Of a DNA stretch of 64,000 nt, positions 48,292-56,590 are shown in pieces; the stretch's first letter is position 1; every line of letters starts with the position of its first letter. The position numbers were made by a program, and so were the translations under genes. The notes below the pieces were generated by a model. The model ran no database searches. It saw only the letters and a list, made by a program, of their open reading frames with translations, and was not told the DNA's origin. Source of the stretch: Thermococcus barophilus MP (GTDB taxonomy: Archaea; Methanobacteriota_B; Thermococci; Thermococcales; Thermococcaceae); the NCBI RefSeq assembly GCF_000151105.2, contig NC_014804.1:1-64000 (forward strand), in the 5' to 3' direction.

Positions 48292-49443
48292 ATGCAGATG
48301 CAGTTTGAAGATGCTTACAAGGAAGTTTATGAGATCGTTAAGCCGAGATACAAGCTCTTCACAGCTGGTCCAGTTGCATGTTTCCCCGAGGTTCTTGAGA
48401 TAATGAAAGTTCAGATGTTCAGCCACAGAGCAAAGGAATACAAGGTAATCCACATGGACACCCTTGAAAGGCTTAAAAAATTCTTAGAAGCTGAAAACGG
48501 AGAGATAATTCTCTTCCCGAGTTCTGGAACTGGGTTTATGGAAGCAGCTGTTAGGAACACAGTTCCAAGGGGAGGAAAAGTTTTGGTTACCATAATTGGT
48601 GCATTTGGAAAGCGCTTTAAGGAAGTTGTTGAGTCGAATGGGAGAAAAGCCGTAACGCTTGAGTACGAACCCGGAAAGGCTGTGAAGCCAGAGGATCTCG
48701 ATGATGCATTAAGAAAAAACCCTGATGTTCATGCAGTAACTATAACATATAATGAAACTTCAACAGGCGTTCTCAATCCCCTTCCAGAGTTAGCCAAAGT
48801 TGTAAACGAACATGACAAGCTTCTCTTTGTGGATGCGGTTAGTGCAATGGGAGGGGCTGACATAAAATTTGACAAATGGGGAATCGACATAATTTTTGGA
48901 AGTTCACAGAAAGCTTTTGGTGTTCCACCTGGTCTGGCAATCGCTGCCATTAGCCAGAGGGTCTTTGAAATCGCCGAAAAGATGCCGGAGAGGGGCTGGT
49001 ACTTTGATCTGCCTCTCTATAAGAAGTTCAACTACAAGAAGCAGGGGACGCCTTCAACCCCACCGATGCCTCAGGTCTTTGGTCTCAACGTTGTGTTGAG
49101 AATCATAGAGAAGATGGGCGGCAAGGAAGAGTGGCTCAAGATGTATCAGAAGAGGGCGGAGATGATAAGGAACGGGGTTAGGGAGATAGGTCTTGAGATC
49201 TTAGCAGAGCCCGGTTATGAAAGCCCAACAATAACTGCTGTCCTAACGCCAGAGGGCATAAAGGGCGAGGAAGTTTACAATGCAATGCGTGAAAGGGGCT
49301 TTGAACTGGCAAAGGGTTACGGTGAGGGAATTAAAGAAAAGACATTTAGGATTGGCCACATGGGATACATGACATTTGAAGACATTGAGGAGATGCTCCA
49401 AAACTTAAAAGAAGTTATAGAAGAACTGAAGAAGAAAGCTTAG
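48292..49443 (+). CDS. Class V aminotransferase, alanine-glyoxylate/serine-pyruvate type
   Basis: The 383-aa PLP enzyme has FTAGPVACFPEVLEIM (substrate N-terminal motif), SSGTGFMEAAVRN (cofactor phosphate), VDAVSAMGGADI (PLP Asp) and the Schiff-base region FGSSQKAFGVPPG. It probably transfers amino groups between alanine or serine and glyoxylate or pyruvate; family members in Thermococcales also use tryptophan or aspartate analogues. ATG 48292 follows GAGGTGG. The TATA lies near 48250. Its 3' end overlaps the convergent NTPase gene by 4 bp. Confidence 0.9.
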   Translation: MQMQFEDAYKEVYEIVKPRYKLFTAGPVACFPEVLEIMKVQMFSHRAKEYKVIHMDTLERLKKFLEAENGEIILFPSSGTGFMEAAVRNTVPRGGKVLVTIIGAFGKRFKEVVESNGRKAVTLEYEPGKAVKPEDLDDALRKNPDVHAVTITYNETSTGVLNPLPELAKVVNEHDKLLFVDAVSAMGGADIKFDKWGIDIIFGSSQKAFGVPPGLAIAAISQRVFEIAEKMPERGWYFDLPLYKKFNYKKQGTPSTPPMPQVFGLNVVLRIIEKMGGKEEWLKMYQKRAEMIRNGVREIGLEILAEPGYESPTITAVLTPEGIKGEEVYNAMRERGFELAKGYGEGIKEKTFRIGHMGYMTFEDIEEMLQNLKEVIEELKKKA

Positions 49444-50033
49444 CATATCTTTTCAAGCTTTATCTTTTTTCCTTCTTCAACAACTTTATAGATTGCATTA
49501 ACTTTTCTGGCTCCCTCTTTTATATCGCGGTAGAGCTCAATTACAAGTTCAAACCTTTTTAGAGTCTCATCATCTATCTTAAGCCAGTGTTTAACTTCAC
49601 TCACTACGTCCCTTGAAAGTATGAGAGAGGATATTATGAATGCATAGTCATCTATAAGCTCTCCCAGAATCAGGGGCACGTTAATTGTGTGGAGAGTGTC
49701 TATAACAACGTAATCGGGATTGAGTTTTTTGATTTCCCCAATCACTTCCTTCGTTCTTGTTCTAACGCTCTTTTTGTCGAATTCAGTGTTTATAATCTCA
49801 ATGTTTTCTTTGAAGGGTTTGAACTCATTATAAGCCGTTACAACTGCTATTTTCCACTCATCGGGAATTAAATGAACCATAGCCTCAATCAGCTTTGTTT
49901 TACCTGCTCTGCTTGCTCCTACAACTAAAATGTCGCTTTTTCTGAGAAGGGCATTTTTAATAGTCTCAAGCTGTTCATTGGTTATGTTACCATAGCGGAG
50001 CAAATCTTCTGGAGTAAAGATGTAAACTCCCAT
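49440..50033 (-). CDS. Small P-loop NTPase (VirB11/PilT-like core)
   Basis: The 197-aa protein has a Walker A motif DILVVGASRAGKTKLIEAM (residues about 33-51), a Walker B DYVVIDTLHTI, and a helical N-terminus EDLLRYGNITNEQLETI. The layout, without N-terminal domain, resembles the core of type II/IV secretion ATPases, in which a short helix precedes GxxxxGKT. No pilus or secretion genes adjoin it. ATG 50033 follows GGTGAC. It lies between the aminotransferase and the exported-protein cluster, divergent from the latter. Function unassigned. Confidence 0.65.
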   Translation of the reverse strand: MGVYIFTPEDLLRYGNITNEQLETIKNALLRKSDILVVGASRAGKTKLIEAMVHLIPDEWKIAVVTAYNEFKPFKENIEIINTEFDKKSVRTRTKEVIGEIKKLNPDYVVIDTLHTINVPLILGELIDDYAFIISSLILSRDVVSEVKHWLKIDDETLKRFELVIELYRDIKEGARKVNAIYKVVEEGKKIKLEKIC

Positions 50034-50199
50034 TTTTGTCACCGTAGAATAGTTGATTGGGGGGGTTATAATGGTATCGATGTGGGATGTTTGATTTTTG
50101 GAGTTGAGTAATTTTCTTTTACTTTGTTGTTTTGGGATGTTTATGTTCGGGTTTTTGGTGGTTGTATTTTGTTTTTTGCTTTGCTTCGTAATTGGAAAA

Positions 50200-50209
50200 G
50201 TATTTATAG
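50200..50209 (+). promoter_or_regulatory. TATA box of the exported-protein cluster
   Basis: GTATTTATAG lies about 50 nt before ATG 50256. The 222-bp gap is T/G-rich on the plus strand, unlike neighbouring gaps, and contains no other gene that I can support. Confidence 0.55.
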
Positions 50210-50255
50210 TACTTTTGGCTATGGTATTAGTGATGAGCTTGTTTGGGGGGGGCGA

Positions 50256-51674
50256 ATGCGGAAGTGGGTAGTTTTGGGCGTTGTTGTGCTGTTAGTGTTT
50301 AGCAGTTTTGGTTTTGTGTTTGCTGAACAGTTTCAAGAAGTAAAGGATTTGCAAGTTAAGACTGAGAAGTGTGAAGGCTGTTCTTGCCAGGATTTCGATG
50401 TTGATAAGGCTTTGAGTGAAGTGAATGCAAAGATAGAGAATTTAACCAAAGTGATTAACCAAGAAGAAGCAGAGTTGCAGAAGCTTTACGCTGAACTCAA
50501 CAGGACTAAGAGCATTGAAACTCTTGAGAAGATTGTTAAGCTTGAGGATAAGGTTCAGAATATAAAACATGATTTGAAAGCCTTTGAGCGTCAAAAGCTT
50601 AGTTTGGAGTTGGTTAAAAAGTATACTCGTAAGACTCCTTATGGGCTTCAGGTTCTTTATTATAAGCTTCCTAGGGAGGATGTGTTGGTCAAGCAATACA
50701 TAGAGAAAGTTCATCCTGTTAGGGAGGATGTTGATTTAGATTGGTTTATTGCTTTTTACAGGCAGGCTGGTGAGTTGACTTTTGATGAGTATATTGAGAC
50801 CGACATGAAGCTTAGGGAGACTCTTAAAGCAGTGAAAGCTGGTAATGCTACAATTGAGGATGCTTTAAAGCTTATTCAGCAAAGGAAGGAAATCTGGGAC
50901 AGAATTTATGGATACTTAGAAGAGAAGACCAAACTTGAAACAATCAAAAGACTTAAAGAACTCGGAAAACAACAAACAATCATGAAAACGATAGGAATAC
51001 AACCACTAGGAATTGACAATATAATTTACTATAGCGAACTTGGAACACGATATGTATGTTCTCAAGTCTCTATTGGTGGTGTTTTGTATTGTGGCGGGGA
51101 CAATCCCTTAAAAGATACATTGCCTCCTTACTATATAAGTCCAGTAGAATACAGGGATTTAGAGCCTATTGCTGTGTGGGTTGGAGTGTATGCTTCAGAT
51201 ACTCCAAATTCGGACTATTATTTGGGCCAATTTTGTGTATACACTTTCAAAAAAGAAAGCGAATTACACTACTATTGGGAAAGGGCAAGAAACTATGATG
51301 TGCGAGCTAAGTCCATTCAAATAAAATACTTCTATGATGGCATAGCTTACAATCCAAAAACCTCCGAAGAACAAGTAGCCAATCTCATCTGGCAATTTGA
51401 ATGTAATGCTAACGGATGTTGGCTTACAAGTTATAGACCACATCTACCCAATCCAGATAATCCATATTATATTCCAAATGACAATTATAGGCTGTACGTC
51501 TACTGGAGAGTATTAAGCTCAAATTGTTGCAAAAGTGGTAGCAGTCATGACAATCCCTATGGATGTCTTTGGGCTAATGGTCACTGTGGTGGTTGTTTCG
51601 CCCCAGATGATTCAGCATCTCAGTATTTCCCCCATGTAGATAGGCCATATCAGGTGGATATCCCCCAAAGCTAA
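50256..51674 (+). CDS. Exported cysteine-rich protein with coiled coil
   Basis: The 472-aa protein begins with a signal peptide (MRKWVVLGVVVLLVFSSFGF, then VFAEQ). Next come a cysteine motif CEGCSCQDF, a coiled coil of about 70 residues (VNAKIENLTKVINQEEAELQ onward), a helical middle part with a second coiled stretch, and a C-terminal beta-rich domain. That domain contains cysteines in pairs and triplets: VCSQVS, LYCGGD, FECNANGCW, SSNCCKSG, YGCLWANGHCGGCFAPDD. GGGGGGCGA precedes the ATG. A decayed copy of the last motif lies at 53242-53364, so the family duplicated here. No family recognised. Confidence 0.8.
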   Translation: MRKWVVLGVVVLLVFSSFGFVFAEQFQEVKDLQVKTEKCEGCSCQDFDVDKALSEVNAKIENLTKVINQEEAELQKLYAELNRTKSIETLEKIVKLEDKVQNIKHDLKAFERQKLSLELVKKYTRKTPYGLQVLYYKLPREDVLVKQYIEKVHPVREDVDLDWFIAFYRQAGELTFDEYIETDMKLRETLKAVKAGNATIEDALKLIQQRKEIWDRIYGYLEEKTKLETIKRLKELGKQQTIMKTIGIQPLGIDNIIYYSELGTRYVCSQVSIGGVLYCGGDNPLKDTLPPYYISPVEYRDLEPIAVWVGVYASDTPNSDYYLGQFCVYTFKKESELHYYWERARNYDVRAKSIQIKYFYDGIAYNPKTSEEQVANLIWQFECNANGCWLTSYRPHLPNPDNPYYIPNDNYRLYVYWRVLSSNCCKSGSSHDNPYGCLWANGHCGGCFAPDDSASQYFPHVDRPYQVDIPQS

Positions 51675-51687
51675 AGGAGGGTGCACA

Positions 51688-53164
51688 TTGAAAAGAATGC
51701 TATTTTTCTTTCTTTTCATTTTATTATTTCAAGAAAGTTTTGTATACAGTTGGATTACCCTCGTTCCCGTGTCACCACTTTCACAAAGCATTTATTATGC
51801 TCCTCGTGATGTTACAATTTTTTCAGTGTCAAATGATAGCAGACATGTAGCAGTGGGTTTCAATGCTATCTGCATTTACATCAATAATCCAGAGGGAGGA
51901 ACGTATGAGCGTTGTGACGGAAGTGCCTCAATATATCTCCTCAAAGATGGAGAACTCCTTTGGAAAAAGGAAAACATTGGAGATTTCATTGTGAGCCTTT
52001 CACTCTCTTCTAACTATGTTGCTGTTGCAGTTCAAAAGGCTCAAAAAATAGGAGTAGGGTTTATTTACCTCTTCGATCGGAAAGGGAATTTAATTTGGAG
52101 AAAGGAAACTGAATGGCCCCAAAGAATTATCATCACAACCAAAAATAATATAATACTTGGAACTCAAGATGACTATGTTTATGCATTTGACAAGGAAGGG
52201 AACTTGCTGTGGAAGAAAAGGGCGGGAGGAATACTTGACATATCCGTAGATGGGAACTATATAGTTGCGGGCTCCACTAACACTAAAACAATCTATCTGC
52301 TCGACAGAAACGGAACAATACTCTGGAGGCGTGAAGTTGGCTTACTTGGCAATGCTGCAATATCAGAAAAAGGAGAGTATGTAGCAACAATTGTTTTTGA
52401 TAATTACAACGATTACTACAATTCCAAAAACGGCAAAGTACTGATTTTTAACAAAGCTGGAAAGCTTTTGCATGAATATAAAAATGTTTCCACGTTTTCA
52501 CTTTCAAAAGAAGGGAAGTACTTAGCACTAGCTTTTAGAGACAACATAGTCCTCTTGGACATTGAAGGGGGTATAATGTGGGAGAGAAGTATTAAAAATG
52601 GAATGCTAATTTCCCTCAATAATGACCTTATGCAATTGGTACCACCAATGGTAAATTATATATCTCACAACTGAAGGCAAAATTTTAGATGAACACTGGT
52701 TGGGGGTAAAGATAAAGGAATTAAAAATTAAAAAAGATAGAATAATGGCTGGCTCTGGAAGGAGACTCTACATCTTTAGGGTTCTTCATTTAAGCTGTTT
52801 GTTTGGGCCTTTTAGTGAGCCGCTCCAAGTTTCAAACGCTGCGGTTGTTAAGGGGAATACAACGTACATAATCTCAACAGACGGGATAATACTACTCAAT
52901 AACGAAGGTTTTTTAAAAGCTATACAACTCCAGATTCCACCAACTAAGGTTTATGCTGATGCGAACTGGAGGTATTTGGCTTTAGCTTGGAACAAAACAA
53001 TCTGTGTTTTTAACAGTGATTTAAATCCAATTTATGAGTGTAAAAGCTTCAAGAACGAAATTACAGGCGTAAGACTCTGTGGCTCATATCTAACAGTTTG
53101 TTTCAAGGAAAGAATTGTAAAATTTAAAATAAATCAAAAAATAGGTAAGTTTGTCTGGATTTAA
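51688..53164 (+). pseudogene. Exported beta-propeller protein interrupted by two frameshifts
   Basis: A TTG start with AAAGGAGG 7 nt upstream opens a 328-codon frame with a signal peptide (KRMLFFFLFILLFQESFVYS). It then shows PQQ/WD-like repeats of the form hhhhxxGxxhWxK: LLKDGELLWKKEN, LFDRKGNLIWRKE, AFDKEGNLLWKKR, LLDRNGTILWRRE, LLDIEGGIMWERS. The frame leaves the expected sequence near 52631, is restored to IGTTNGKLY in another frame, then shifts again near 52660. From there YLTTEGKILDEHW continues into a frame open to 53164. Both changes look like loss of one T. The joined product would be about 490 aa with two or more further blades. Sequencing error is the alternative. Confidence 0.75.
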
Positions 53165-53241
53165 ACTTAATATTTGGATAAAAGAAGAAGCTAACTGAAA
53201 ATGCTCACATCAAAGCTGAAACATAAAGAAGGAGGGAATAA

Positions 53242-53364
53242 TATGGTTTTTCATACTATAAGAAAAAGGATTTCGGAAGTTCGTGTAAGTGGGCTAATAG
53301 GCATTGTTCGAGCTGTTTTGCTCCGGATGAATCGAAATCGCAGAACTTTCCTTATGAAGGGTGA
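53242..53364 (+). pseudogene. Decayed C-terminal fragment of the cysteine-rich exported protein
   Basis: In this frame the segment reads KWANRHCSSCFAPDESKSQN and stops soon after. It matches WANGHCGGCFAPDDSASQYF near the end of the protein at 50256-51674. The preceding frame is closed by a stop at 53239. A good ribosome binding site (AAGGAGGGA, about 53229-53237) and ATG 53243 exist in a different frame and could make an unrelated 49-aa basic peptide ending at 53392; that is probably accidental. I read it as the remnant of a second cysteine-rich gene. Confidence 0.7.
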
Positions 53365-53378
53365 AGAGGTGTGGAAAA

Positions 53379-54581
53379 GTGAAGCTCTTTAAACTTTTTT
53401 TATTATTTTTGCTTTTTATTTTGGTCTCTGTGGTTATAATCAACCAAAATACTCAAGAACAGAAAAATAAAAATGAGTTTTCTAATGTTACTTCTAATGA
53501 CATTTTCATACACTCCTTTGAGCATTTAGAAAATAAAACACCACTTGAAGGAGAATTTAAACCGATTTTAACTCTCCCTGCTTGGGATTTTCAGGGTTTC
53601 GAGGATAGGCTTTTTGTTTATTATAATGGAACACTTAAGGTCTACAATGTAAAAAGTGGAAAGCTTCTTTTGAACGTGACTCCTGTTTACGATTATTACT
53701 TTTCAAACCGTTATGCTTATATAAAAACCGACAATGGAAGTTTTGTTCTGGATTATGAAACTTTAAGACTAGCACCAATAGACACAGACAAAAATGTTGA
53801 ATATGCTTTTAACCTCGGTAATTGCAGGATTACAGCAAGAGAAAAAAGCATATTAGTGAACTCCCAAGTATTTACATTTAACTCAACGCCAAAAGTCGCG
53901 TTCTTTCCTAACGGATTTGTAGTTTATGGATTATACAAAGATAGAGAGACAAGAGTAATATTTTTTGACGAGAGGTGCAATATTCTAAATGATACAATAA
54001 TTTCGAACTATCCTCTTGTATGTAAGGTAGTGGATCACAAAATTTTCTTTATTCGGCGTGGTTTATTTGCAGTGAATCAATCTAAGTTTCCAAAGCTCAA
54101 AGGTGAGCAGGTTTTGCATGAATATTTGTCAATGAGTAGTGTTTATCTTTTTAATTCAAAAGGACAAGAAATAGCAAGTTTAGGAATGGGTGGTATAATT
54201 GGGTTTTACAACAATACACTTTATTCTTTTAAGGTAAACCCAGACTATTGTGATGAGCTGATAAAGTTTTATTTATCAAACAAGTCCCTCAAGAAACAAT
54301 GTTTTAGAGTCTCTCATTATAGTGGATGGTTTGTATCTCAGGGAACATTTGGAGATTTTGGGGATGGATTTATGGCATTCGCTTACTGGGGGTTCTCGGG
54401 AGAAAGTGGAACTGCTTACAATTACCTCTGCGTGTATGTTTATGATAAACGTCTCAACTGCATTCCCTATTACTCAGGAACTAAAAGGGTAAGCCCAATT
54501 GATGAAATAAAAGCCTGGGATAGATATTTTGCAATTGTACCAAGAGGTTCTGAAGAGGTTGTTGTTTATGAGGTTGAATAA
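53379..54581 (+). CDS. Membrane-anchored beta-propeller-like protein
   Basis: The 400-aa protein has an N-terminal signal anchor (LFKLFLLFLLFILVSVVIIN) followed by an Asn/Thr-rich linker (NVTSNDIF...) and then about 300 residues of beta-strand repeats ending in short turns such as YYNGTLKVYNVKSGKLLLN and LFNSKGQEIASLG. Several N-x-S/T sites occur, as is common for exported archaeal proteins. GTG 53379 with GAGGTG upstream is preferred to GTG 53361. It probably lies on the outer cell surface. It shares layout, but little sequence, with the propellers on either side. Confidence 0.72.
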   Translation: MKLFKLFLLFLLFILVSVVIINQNTQEQKNKNEFSNVTSNDIFIHSFEHLENKTPLEGEFKPILTLPAWDFQGFEDRLFVYYNGTLKVYNVKSGKLLLNVTPVYDYYFSNRYAYIKTDNGSFVLDYETLRLAPIDTDKNVEYAFNLGNCRITAREKSILVNSQVFTFNSTPKVAFFPNGFVVYGLYKDRETRVIFFDERCNILNDTIISNYPLVCKVVDHKIFFIRRGLFAVNQSKFPKLKGEQVLHEYLSMSSVYLFNSKGQEIASLGMGGIIGFYNNTLYSFKVNPDYCDELIKFYLSNKSLKKQCFRVSHYSGWFVSQGTFGDFGDGFMAFAYWGFSGESGTAYNYLCVYVYDKRLNCIPYYSGTKRVSPIDEIKAWDRYFAIVPRGSEEVVVYEVE

Positions 54582-54620
54582 TATTACGCATTGATTGAAC
54601 ACTTGAATGAGGTGTTAAAA

Positions 54621-55532
54621 ATGAGGAAAATATTTACTTTCCTTTTTCTTTTTATAGTTTTGTTATTAACCTTTTATGGAGGCTATAGGTTTCTTTTTGA
54701 AAATAGGGGAATAGCCGTTATTCCTACATCTATAACTAACGTTAGTTGCACCATTGAGAAGTTTTCTCCGCCAGTTAAGATCGAGATTGAGGAAGTTAAG
54801 ATTCCGGTTGATGGTGGATATAAGCCCTTATACACACTATTTAAGTTTTATGACAGAAACGGAACTCTTGTAGGTTACTGGAACACTACGAGGAACTTTA
54901 AAAAAGGATATTTTTACTTCAGAGATGGTTTTGTGGTTTGGAGTTATGATGGGGTTGTTGAAATGGTTTATTTTGACTACAACCTCACAGAAAGATGGTG
55001 GAGAGAGATATACAAAAGTGTTGGGGGCTATGTAGACTTTGTACTGTATGCCTTGTATGCTGATGAGAGTCATATTTTCCTACTTACGGCAAACAGACAT
55101 TTTGCGACAGCAAAAGTTCAAAACTACTGCTTTTACTGGGGTAGTGTTGAAGAAGGCGATATTATTGAACGATTTTGCTCTGATAAAGAGTTATCTCAAA
55201 GTTCATTACTTGGAGGAAAAGTAGTTGGGAATAAAGTCTACATAATCACAGACAATGGGCTCTATCTCTTTACCTATAAGGGGGAGCTCATAAAAAAGAA
55301 AAAGATTGAGCTTTCAAAGATTGAGAGCTTTGACGTGAATGAGAAATATCTTGCCTTTGTTTATCCCAGCGGTGATAAAACATCAAAGCTGTGTGTTATG
55401 ACCTCTAACTTAAAGTCCCAAAGGTGTATTGATGTGAAAGGGAAAGTGGAACAACTAAGGCTATGTGAAAACTACCTCCTCCTGAAAATAGGGAATAAAG
55501 TTAGAGTATTGGAAATTGAAGAGAATTCCTAA
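54621..55532 (+). CDS. Membrane-anchored beta-propeller-like protein
   Basis: The 303-aa protein starts with a signal anchor (MRKIFTFLFLFIVLLLTFYG) and continues with strand-turn repeats: LFKFYDRNGTLVGYW, VYIITDNGLYLFTYKGELIK, then KVEQLRLCENYLLLKIGNKV. The latter resembles the final blade of the broken propeller (ITGVRLCGSYLTVCFKERIV), so the two are related. ATG 54621 has GAGGTG upstream. It is the last gene of the AT-rich cluster, and promoter-like sequence follows at 55533-55675. Cell-surface location is inferred; function unknown. Confidence 0.72.
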   Translation: MRKIFTFLFLFIVLLLTFYGGYRFLFENRGIAVIPTSITNVSCTIEKFSPPVKIEIEEVKIPVDGGYKPLYTLFKFYDRNGTLVGYWNTTRNFKKGYFYFRDGFVVWSYDGVVEMVYFDYNLTERWWREIYKSVGGYVDFVLYALYADESHIFLLTANRHFATAKVQNYCFYWGSVEEGDIIERFCSDKELSQSSLLGGKVVGNKVYIITDNGLYLFTYKGELIKKKKIELSKIESFDVNEKYLAFVYPSGDKTSKLCVMTSNLKSQRCIDVKGKVEQLRLCENYLLLKIGNKVRVLEIEENS

Positions 55533-55675
55533 ATCAAAAATGTCAACTTTAACCATTTTTCTTGTCAATTGTCCAAAAATTATCATATATGAATGCCAAA
55601 ATTTGTTCAAATTCCAAAGTTTTTTGCATAAAAGACATAAACCATGAATGCAGTGTCAAAAAATAGGTGATAAAC

Positions 55676-56590
55676 ATGAATGCTGTTCAATTAGTTAAAA
55701 GAGAAATTGCCCCAGCTATGGAAGTTCAGACCAAGATTATTGAATATATGACAAGGTTTTTTGTCGGCAAAGGGTTTAAGTGGTTGCTTCCAGTGATGCT
55801 CAGCTCGATAACTGATCCTCTCTGGCCAGATCCAGCGGCAAGTGAAGCCTTAAAGCCCCCAGAGATAGAGGCATATGGTGGAAAGCTTAGATTAATGCAT
55901 AGTATGATTTTGCACAAGCAATTGGCAGTTGCTATGGGAATAGACAAGTTGTTCATACTTTCTCCAAACATAAGACTCGAAGGAAGAGAAGCTGACGATG
56001 GAAGACATGCATATGAGTTCACCCAGCTCGACTTTGAAATAGCATATGCAACCATGGACGACGTCATGAGCTTAATCGAAGAGGCGATCTCTGGGCTTTT
56101 CAAAGAGGCAAGAAAGTGGGAGATCCTTGAAGAACTTGGCAGAGAAGTTCCAAAGGCTAAGCCACCGTTTAAGCGCTTTACTCTGGAGGAAATCAAAGCA
56201 GAATTTGGTGATGAAGATAAGGCGAGTGAAGCAATGGATGAACCATTCTGGATTACTGATATTGAGAGAGAATTCTACGATAGAGAAGATCCAGAGAGGC
56301 CAGGACACTTCAGAAACTATGACTTGTACTTACCATGGGGTTACGGTGAGGTCTCAAGCGGCGGCGAGAGAGAGTGGGAGTACGATATAATCGTCAGGAA
56401 GATGAAAAAAGCTGGGATAAGCCTTGAGGCATTCAAACCATACTTAGAGGTTGCCAAAGCTGGTTTACTAAAGCCTACAGCGGGGGCTGGCATAGGCATG
56501 GAGAGATTAGTGAGGTTCATTGTCGGAGCAAAGCACATAGCAGAAGTTCAGCCATTCCCGAGAATTCCAGGTATTCCGGCGATTATTTGA
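55676..56590 (+). CDS. Archaeal asparagine synthetase (AsnRS paralog, AS-AR)
   Basis: The 304-aa protein is the class II synthetase catalytic core without an anticodon-binding domain. It has the motif 2 region HAYEFTQLDFEIAYAT and the motif 3 PTAGAGIGMERLVRFIVG. This size and lack of a tRNA-binding domain are those of the Pyrococcus AsnRS-related asparagine synthetase, which amidates aspartate via an aspartyl-adenylate and ammonia. ATG 55676 follows AGGTGAT. It stands alone between the exported cluster and a nitroreductase. Confidence 0.88.
   Translation: MNAVQLVKREIAPAMEVQTKIIEYMTRFFVGKGFKWLLPVMLSSITDPLWPDPAASEALKPPEIEAYGGKLRLMHSMILHKQLAVAMGIDKLFILSPNIRLEGREADDGRHAYEFTQLDFEIAYATMDDVMSLIEEAISGLFKEARKWEILEELGREVPKAKPPFKRFTLEEIKAEFGDEDKASEAMDEPFWITDIEREFYDREDPERPGHFRNYDLYLPWGYGEVSSGGEREWEYDIIVRKMKKAGISLEAFKPYLEVAKAGLLKPTAGAGIGMERLVRFIVGAKHIAEVQPFPRIPGIPAII

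What the first reader, a model, noticed from the sequence alone, without database searches (positions are those of the whole stretch)
50256..55532. Possible new surface module: cysteine-rich coiled-coil protein paired with beta-propellers
Five consecutive units all encode exported or anchored proteins: Cys-rich coiled-coil, propeller, Cys-rich remnant, propeller, propeller. The repeated order Cys-rich then propeller indicates duplication of a two-gene module. The DNA is visibly more A/T-rich than its surroundings, and genes are decaying, as in fast-evolving or transferred surface loci. Disulfide-rich exteriors are plausible at high temperature. I cannot tie it to any described system.
Basis: partly seen in the sequence, partly recalled or inferred. 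Interest (0 to 1): 0.75.

Follow-up and report, generated by a model that had tools for sequence, protein, structure and literature searches.

The report
Mix-and-match secreted protein–propeller module
Heat-loving archaea carry a swappable two-gene kit, a cysteine-rich secreted protein plus a matching membrane-anchored propeller protein, which is reshuffled between species the way bacterial toxin and immunity pairs are, although what it does has not been tested.

Summary
The window carries a 5.48-kb module (50056-55539), absent from this site in four same-genus genomes. Gene A (50256-51674) encodes a secreted coiled-coil protein with a conserved cysteine-rich C-terminus, unlike any characterised family. 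A-like sequence, including remnants, occurs in 37 of 115 genomes of the phylum. An intact A is followed almost without gap by a propeller-family gene, drawn from at least four divergent groups. A is a mosaic: its first ~115 residues follow the genome, while its body follows the adjacent propeller (trees conflict, AU p<1e-40). The "Cys-rich remnant" is not a duplicate of A. It is 29/29 identical to the tail of another genome's A whose partner is a D-type propeller, and it sits just before D. It is therefore a displaced orphan of a different pair, as in CDI/Rhs loci. Elsewhere A is often broken while the propeller stays intact (13 against 2). I favour a polymorphic secreted effector with its cognate membrane-anchored propeller as immunity or recognition partner. 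Toxicity, binding and expression are untested. Thermococcales VARTIG modules are the nearest published analogue, built from unrelated proteins.

The parts
50056..55539 (+). Whole inserted module; flanks are joined by 80-107 bp of unrelated intergenic DNA in four genomes of the same genus
   Evidence: flanks 83-96% identical up to window 50055 (50051 in one) and from 55537-55558 in G087, G089, G090, G092
50196..50255 (+). Leader of A: TATA-like box (about 50203-50210) and a run of eight G (50245-50252) at the ribosome-binding position
   Evidence: similar leader in most A loci; all 11 runs of 8 or more G in 721 kb of neighbourhood DNA precede an A start
50256..51674 (+). Gene A: signal peptide (~1-23), N-terminal Cys motif, coiled coil (~48-245), Cys-rich C-terminal domain with motif CLWANGHCGGCFAPD
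   Evidence: nine invariant or nearly invariant Cys between residues 268 and 447 in 24 full-length homologues; no Pfam or PDB family
51688..53164 (+). Gene B: PQQ/BamB-type propeller cognate to A, exported, broken by about two frameshifts near 52640
   Evidence: same group (P3) follows the closest A bodies in L055 and L057
53275..53364 (+). Remnant of the 3' end of a second, D-type A gene (GSSCKWANRHCSSCFAPDESKSQNFPYEG, stop)
   Evidence: 29/29 residues identical to the C-terminus of A1 in L074 (G091), whose next gene is a D-like propeller (55% identical to D)
53379..54581 (+). Gene D: membrane-anchored, propeller-family orphan partner of the displaced D-type A
   Evidence: homologues follow A in G091 and G092; 77% identical copy at a contig end in G093
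54621..55532 (+). Gene E: membrane-anchored propeller, group P0, without an A remnant of its own
   Evidence: relatives follow A or an A remnant in G076, G085, G093, G053, G064

Best explanation
A polymorphic secreted two-component module. A is exported (signal peptide) and carries a head of about 115 residues that follows the genome and an allele-specific body (coiled coil plus disulfide-rich C-terminal domain). The gene behind it encodes a propeller-fold protein, exported or membrane-anchored on the outside, that is specific for that body. Bodies and their propellers travel together, while the head is exchanged or homogenised by homologous recombination between loci. When a new pair arrives, older pairs end up downstream as a 3' scrap of A with a complete propeller gene. 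Most likely function: A acts on or marks other archaeal cells and the propeller protects the producer by binding its cognate A (effector and immunity), with orphan propellers kept as extra immunities. Shown: conserved pairing, mosaic structure, body-partner correlation, orphan-remnant cognacy, decay bias, horizontal insertion. Inferred: export of both proteins, physical A-propeller binding, any toxicity, protective role.
For: Pairing: every full-length A locus has a same-strand propeller-family gene starting within about 55 bp of, or overlapping, its end; in distant families of the class one A-like gene is followed directly by a PQQ_2 propeller (L107, Pfam 1.6e-20). Body follows partner: body vs propeller similarity partial rho 0.52 controlling for the head (p 0.0005); head given body 0.19. 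Mosaic: L061/L073 in one genome are 92-100% identical in DNA from -60 to +300, then about 45%; L073's body instead groups with L070 of another genus, as does its propeller; AU tests reject a common tree for head and body. The window A is itself mosaic: head with L056 (P0 partner, 93/82), body with L055/L057 (P3 partner, 97/97*). Orphan remnants match the A type cognate to the propeller behind them in 6 of 6 informative cases. Decay bias: A broken/propeller intact 13 loci, reverse 2 (p 0.004; 0.017 allowing for gene length; classification by hand). dN/dS of orphan propellers 0.09-0.37.
Against: No toxic domain is recognisable in A and the body is homologous throughout (conserved Cys frame), unlike polymorphic toxins whose C-terminal domains are unrelated. 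No activity, binding or expression data. AlphaFold of A is unreliable (mean pLDDT 44 with three sequences). I know of no propeller that is a proven immunity protein. Some propellers decay too (window B, L059, L048). Purifying selection on orphans is not clean evidence of use without A, because alleles recombine (L044 shares an A deletion with L046 but a 98% identical propeller with intact L063). Loci counted are not all independent, and the mosaic pairs tested were picked after seeing the alignment.
Confidence: 0.42

Rival explanations
1. Variable surface recognition complex (VARTIG-like): A is a disulfide-locked coiled-coil stalk with a recognition head, docked on a membrane-anchored propeller; allele pairs define self/non-self, adhesion partners or virus susceptibility, and downstream orphans are a reservoir for antigenic switching.
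For: Conserved fold with divergent alleles in both partners and matched swapping; no toxin domain; precedent of VARTIG in the same order (PMC8416519).
Against: The bias to lose A but keep propellers and arrays of propellers with no A (L110, L118) are less expected if the propeller is only a docking base.
Confidence: 0.35
2. Secreted enzyme or binding protein with a propeller chaperone/assembly factor (BamB-like housekeeping), diversified by frequent transfer rather than by conflict.
For: The P3 group, including B, is related to BamB/PQQ propellers; purifying selection in A (dN/dS 0.09-0.26 over the longer comparisons).
Against: Patchy distribution, remnants of other types, pair-specific co-swapping and orphan arrays are not typical of housekeeping.
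Confidence: 0.13
3. Tandem duplication and decay of one two-gene surface operon.
For: Repeated order Cys-rich then propeller in the window.
Against: The remnant is identical to a different genome's A type and unlike the local A tail; propellers B, D, E belong to different groups.
Confidence: 0.03

Closest known systems
VARTIG (VARiable Thermococcales IG) modules, Makarova et al. 2021, PMC8416519
   Same: Restricted mainly to Thermococcales; a longer secreted protein at the 5' end, variable downstream membrane proteins, recombination between a conserved and a variable part, shorter homologues of the C-terminal part, patchy islands.
   Different: VARTIG proteins (arCOG07710, Ig domains) are unrelated; here the partners are propellers, A's tail motif is its most conserved part, and pairs co-swap. 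The paper's main text never mentions propellers or coiled coils.
CDI / Rhs polymorphic toxin-immunity loci, Poole et al. 2011, PMC3150448
   Same: Constant front with exchangeable rear plus cognate downstream gene; downstream arrays of orphan 3' toxin fragments lacking start codons, each followed by its own intact immunity gene.
   Different: No CdiA/Rhs homology found; body alleles here are homologous to each other, not unrelated toxin domains; partners are extracellular propellers; no activity shown.
BamB / PQQ-type beta-propellers (PF13360)
   Same: B and the P3 group match by sequence (Pfam 6.5e-17; PDB BamB chains from about 1e-11); E's model matches propellers by fold.
   Different: Groups P0, P5 and D are linked to them only by profile comparison; archaeal, no outer membrane or BAM complex.

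Membership tests
Polymorphic toxin systems (CDI/Rhs-like) | Conserved N-terminal part with exchangeable C-terminal part | tested here: met
   Head/body trees conflict; DNA identity drops from about 95% to 45% at about +300 bp
Polymorphic toxin systems (CDI/Rhs-like) | Cognate gene directly downstream that co-transfers with the variable part | tested here: met
Polymorphic toxin systems (CDI/Rhs-like) | Orphan 3' fragments followed by their own cognate gene | tested here: met
   6 of 6 informative remnants
Polymorphic toxin systems (CDI/Rhs-like) | Recognisable or demonstrated toxin domain in the variable part, unrelated between alleles | tested here: not met
   No Pfam, NCBIfam or PADLOC toxin match; bodies all homologous
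Polymorphic toxin systems (CDI/Rhs-like) | Growth inhibition neutralised by the cognate downstream protein | not testable with these tools
   Needs bench work
VARTIG | Large arCOG07710 Ig-domain protein first in the operon | tested here: not met
   A has no Ig-domain match in Pfam and no PDB relative; architecture is coiled coil plus Cys-rich domain
PQQ/BamB beta-propeller (B) | PF13360 above its curated cut-off | tested here: met
   62.4 bits against 27.6
Beta-propeller fold (E) | Fold match to propeller structures | tested here: met
   Top PDB matches are propellers, probability 1.00, though TM only about 0.3 because residues 44-139 are poorly modelled
Beta-propeller fold (D) | Fold or sequence match to propellers | tested here: inconclusive
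   Only transitive: D profile to P5 2.2e-15, P5 to P0 5e-8, P0 to P3 4.8e-5 at 68% probability; direct D to P0 and D to P3 matches are weak

The most novel reading that the evidence does not exclude
A previously undescribed polymorphic effector/immunity (or self/non-self recognition) system of hyperthermophilic archaea, in which beta-propellers are the allele-specific immunity or receptor proteins and disulfide-rich coiled-coil proteins are the secreted weapon or badge.
Probability: 0.5. Interest if true: 0.8.

Novelty: new variant of a known kind. Interest (0 to 1): 0.62.

Why it matters
Conflict and recognition systems of archaea are poorly known; in hyperthermophiles VARTIG is the one published polymorphic surface module I found, and its function is unknown. 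This gives a second, unrelated module in the same order with clearer genetics: matched pairs, a defined recombination boundary, orphan partners and empty sites. Two A-bearing genomes have sizes that match, from memory, the genetically tractable Thermococcus kodakarensis KOD1 (G024, 2088737 bp) and T. onnurineus NA1 (G026, 1847607 bp), so the effector/immunity question can be tested directly.

Tried and rejected
Polymorphic A tail (toxin domain at the extreme C-terminus): rejected, the last motif is the most conserved part. Virus or plasmid origin: no A relative in IMG/VR, phages or plasmids, no integrase ORF in the insert. Known defence system: no meaningful PADLOC hit. Foreign compositional origin: GC low but codon usage normal. 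Contig-end propellers (L112-L115) are uninformative about loss of A. G-tract leader as a feature unique to A: rejected genome-wide, other secreted proteins carry it too. Literature search for locus tags or a description found none.

Full report
WHAT IS IN THE WINDOW. Between a reverse-strand P-loop ATPase-like gene (49440-50042) and an asparagine-tRNA-synthetase-like gene (55667-56590; name inferred from its sequence, not searched) lies a 5.48-kb block, 50056-55539. In four other genomes of the genus (G087, G089, G090, G092) the two flanks are 83-96% identical to the window and are joined by only 80-107 bp. The block is therefore an insertion or the survivor of repeated loss; no integrase or transposase is in it. 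Its genes are AT-rich (GC 0.34-0.39 against 0.422 +/- 0.025) but use codons like their neighbours, which fits exchange among Thermococcales rather than import from afar.

GENE A. A (472 aa) has a signal peptide, an N-terminal Cys cluster, a long coiled coil and a C-terminal domain in which, over 24 full-length homologues, nine cysteines (C268, C279, C327, C383, C388, C424, C437, C444, C447) are invariant or nearly so, together with W439, N441, H443, F448, D451, Q456 and F458. No Pfam, NCBIfam or PDB family fits beyond chance coiled-coil scores. With one query 31 of 94 family genomes, and with the profile 37 of 115 phylum genomes, hold A-like sequence, with up to five matches per genome. Four genomes of other families of the class carry the C-terminal domain (L104-L108); there L107 has the A-like gene followed at once by a PQQ_2 propeller gene, which suggests the pairing is old, although other distant copies (L104, L106, L108) lack a recognisable propeller next door.

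PARTNERS. In every full-length A locus the next gene on the same strand starts within about 55 bp of, or overlaps, the end of A and encodes a protein of one of four mutually divergent groups: P3 (B-like, PQQ/BamB propellers), P0 (E-like), P5, and D-like. Profile comparison links D to P5 (2.2e-15), P5 to P0 (5e-8) and P0 weakly to P3 (4.8e-5). P3 matches designed PQQ propellers and BamB in the PDB. The AlphaFold model of E (mean pLDDT 65, residues 200-300 near 88) matches propellers. Partners begin with a signal or membrane-anchor segment (sequence inspection), so both proteins should act outside the membrane.

MOSAIC STRUCTURE. Two A genes of genome G076, about 0.8 Mb apart (L061, L073), are 92-100% identical in DNA from 60 bp upstream to about 300 bp into the gene, then fall to about 45%; L067/L070 of G092 behave alike. 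Beyond that boundary L073 is instead close to L070 of another genus (62%, 80% and 93% identity in successive segments), and their propellers are close too (normalised similarity 0.71). Trees of head (1-115) and body (125-460) conflict: L061+L073 and L067+L070 have starred support in the head tree and are rejected in the body tree (AU p 2e-41 and 6e-102), and the reverse holds for L070+L073 (p 2e-97). These pairs were picked after seeing the alignment, so the p-values are descriptive. The body tree largely sorts by propeller type. The window A has a head near L056 (P0 partner, 93/82) and a body with L055/L057 (P3 partner, 97/97*). Mantel tests agree: body against partner, controlling for the head, partial rho 0.52 (p 0.0005); head against partner, controlling for the body, 0.19.

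REMNANTS AND ORPHANS. The 29-residue remnant before D is 29/29 identical to the end of a frameshifted A gene in G091 (L074) whose next gene is a D-like propeller, 55% identical to D; the local A tail ranks 15th of 25. Thus the window holds the current pair A+B (B now broken), a displaced pair of which only the 3' scrap of A and an intact D survive, and another propeller, E. The same rule, remnant type equals cognate type of the propeller behind it, holds in all six informative cases (window, L058, L049, L109, L044, L046; about four independent types); L042 and L039 had no close propeller for comparison. This is the arrangement described for orphan cdiA-CT/cdiI and rhs modules (PMC3150448). Counting loci by hand: A broken or lost with an intact propeller 13 (L039-L044, L046, L047, L049, L072, L074, L110, L118), A intact with a broken propeller 2 (window, L059), both broken 3 (L045/L069, L048, L109); 13 against 2 gives p 0.004, or 0.017 allowing for A being longer. 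Orphan propellers show dN/dS of 0.09-0.37, but recombination between loci blurs this.

HOW IT PROBABLY WORKS. The pattern (recombining front, matched rear plus partner, orphan partners kept after the first gene is lost, patchy insertion) is that of polymorphic conflict or recognition systems. I favour a secreted effector (A) with a membrane-anchored cognate propeller as immunity (0.42), followed by a VARTIG-like surface recognition complex (0.35). The genetics are shown; binding, toxicity and immunity are inferred. It cannot be filed as a polymorphic toxin: no toxin domain is found and the alleles are homologous throughout. It cannot be filed as VARTIG: no Ig domains.

Right on the module, AT bias, decay and lack of a described system; wrong on duplication; unaware of the mosaic and of the cognacy of the remnant, which are the informative parts.

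Noticed in passing
window 50245-50252; L055, L056, L057, L058, L064, L065, L066, L067, L070 and others: A run of eight G lies 3-5 bp before the A start codon in many genomes; all 11 runs of 8 or more G in 721 kb of neighbourhood DNA are there, with lengths 7-8 varying between loci. Genome-wide, G-runs before ATG are enriched over a reversed-pattern control and also precede other, unrelated secreted proteins, some with A-like signal peptides. A possible slippage-prone ribosome-binding site of secreted proteins.
   Followed up: partly
L133, L140, L143, L152, L154: Small exported proteins of about 126-137 aa (MPRKVLALFLLGVLFF...LYCWISGYASQSQPG) with the G-run leader, present in several Thermococcus-family genomes; identity unknown.
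   Followed up: no
L116 6240-7475 (own genome C1:1712239-1713474) and L117: A distant D-like propeller at the same chromosomal place in two genomes, with no A beside it; possibly a resident ancestor or a settled orphan.
   Followed up: partly
L044, L046, L048: Three genomes share one identical internal deletion of A (signal-peptide region joined to the 3' end, same breakpoint) in front of a propeller gene that is intact in two of them.
   Followed up: partly
L049 7675-8607 versus L050 2339-3283: Orphan propeller in G085 is 96% identical (dS 0.05) to the paired propeller of another genus, G093 (Thermococcus sp. JdFR-02 by contig match): recent inter-genus transfer.
   Followed up: partly
window 49440-50042 (-): P-loop protein with weak VirB11/TadA-type ATPase similarity (NCBIfam 4.5e-8) borders the insertion; DNA covering it is present in the four empty-site genomes, so it belongs to the site, not to the module.
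   Followed up: partly
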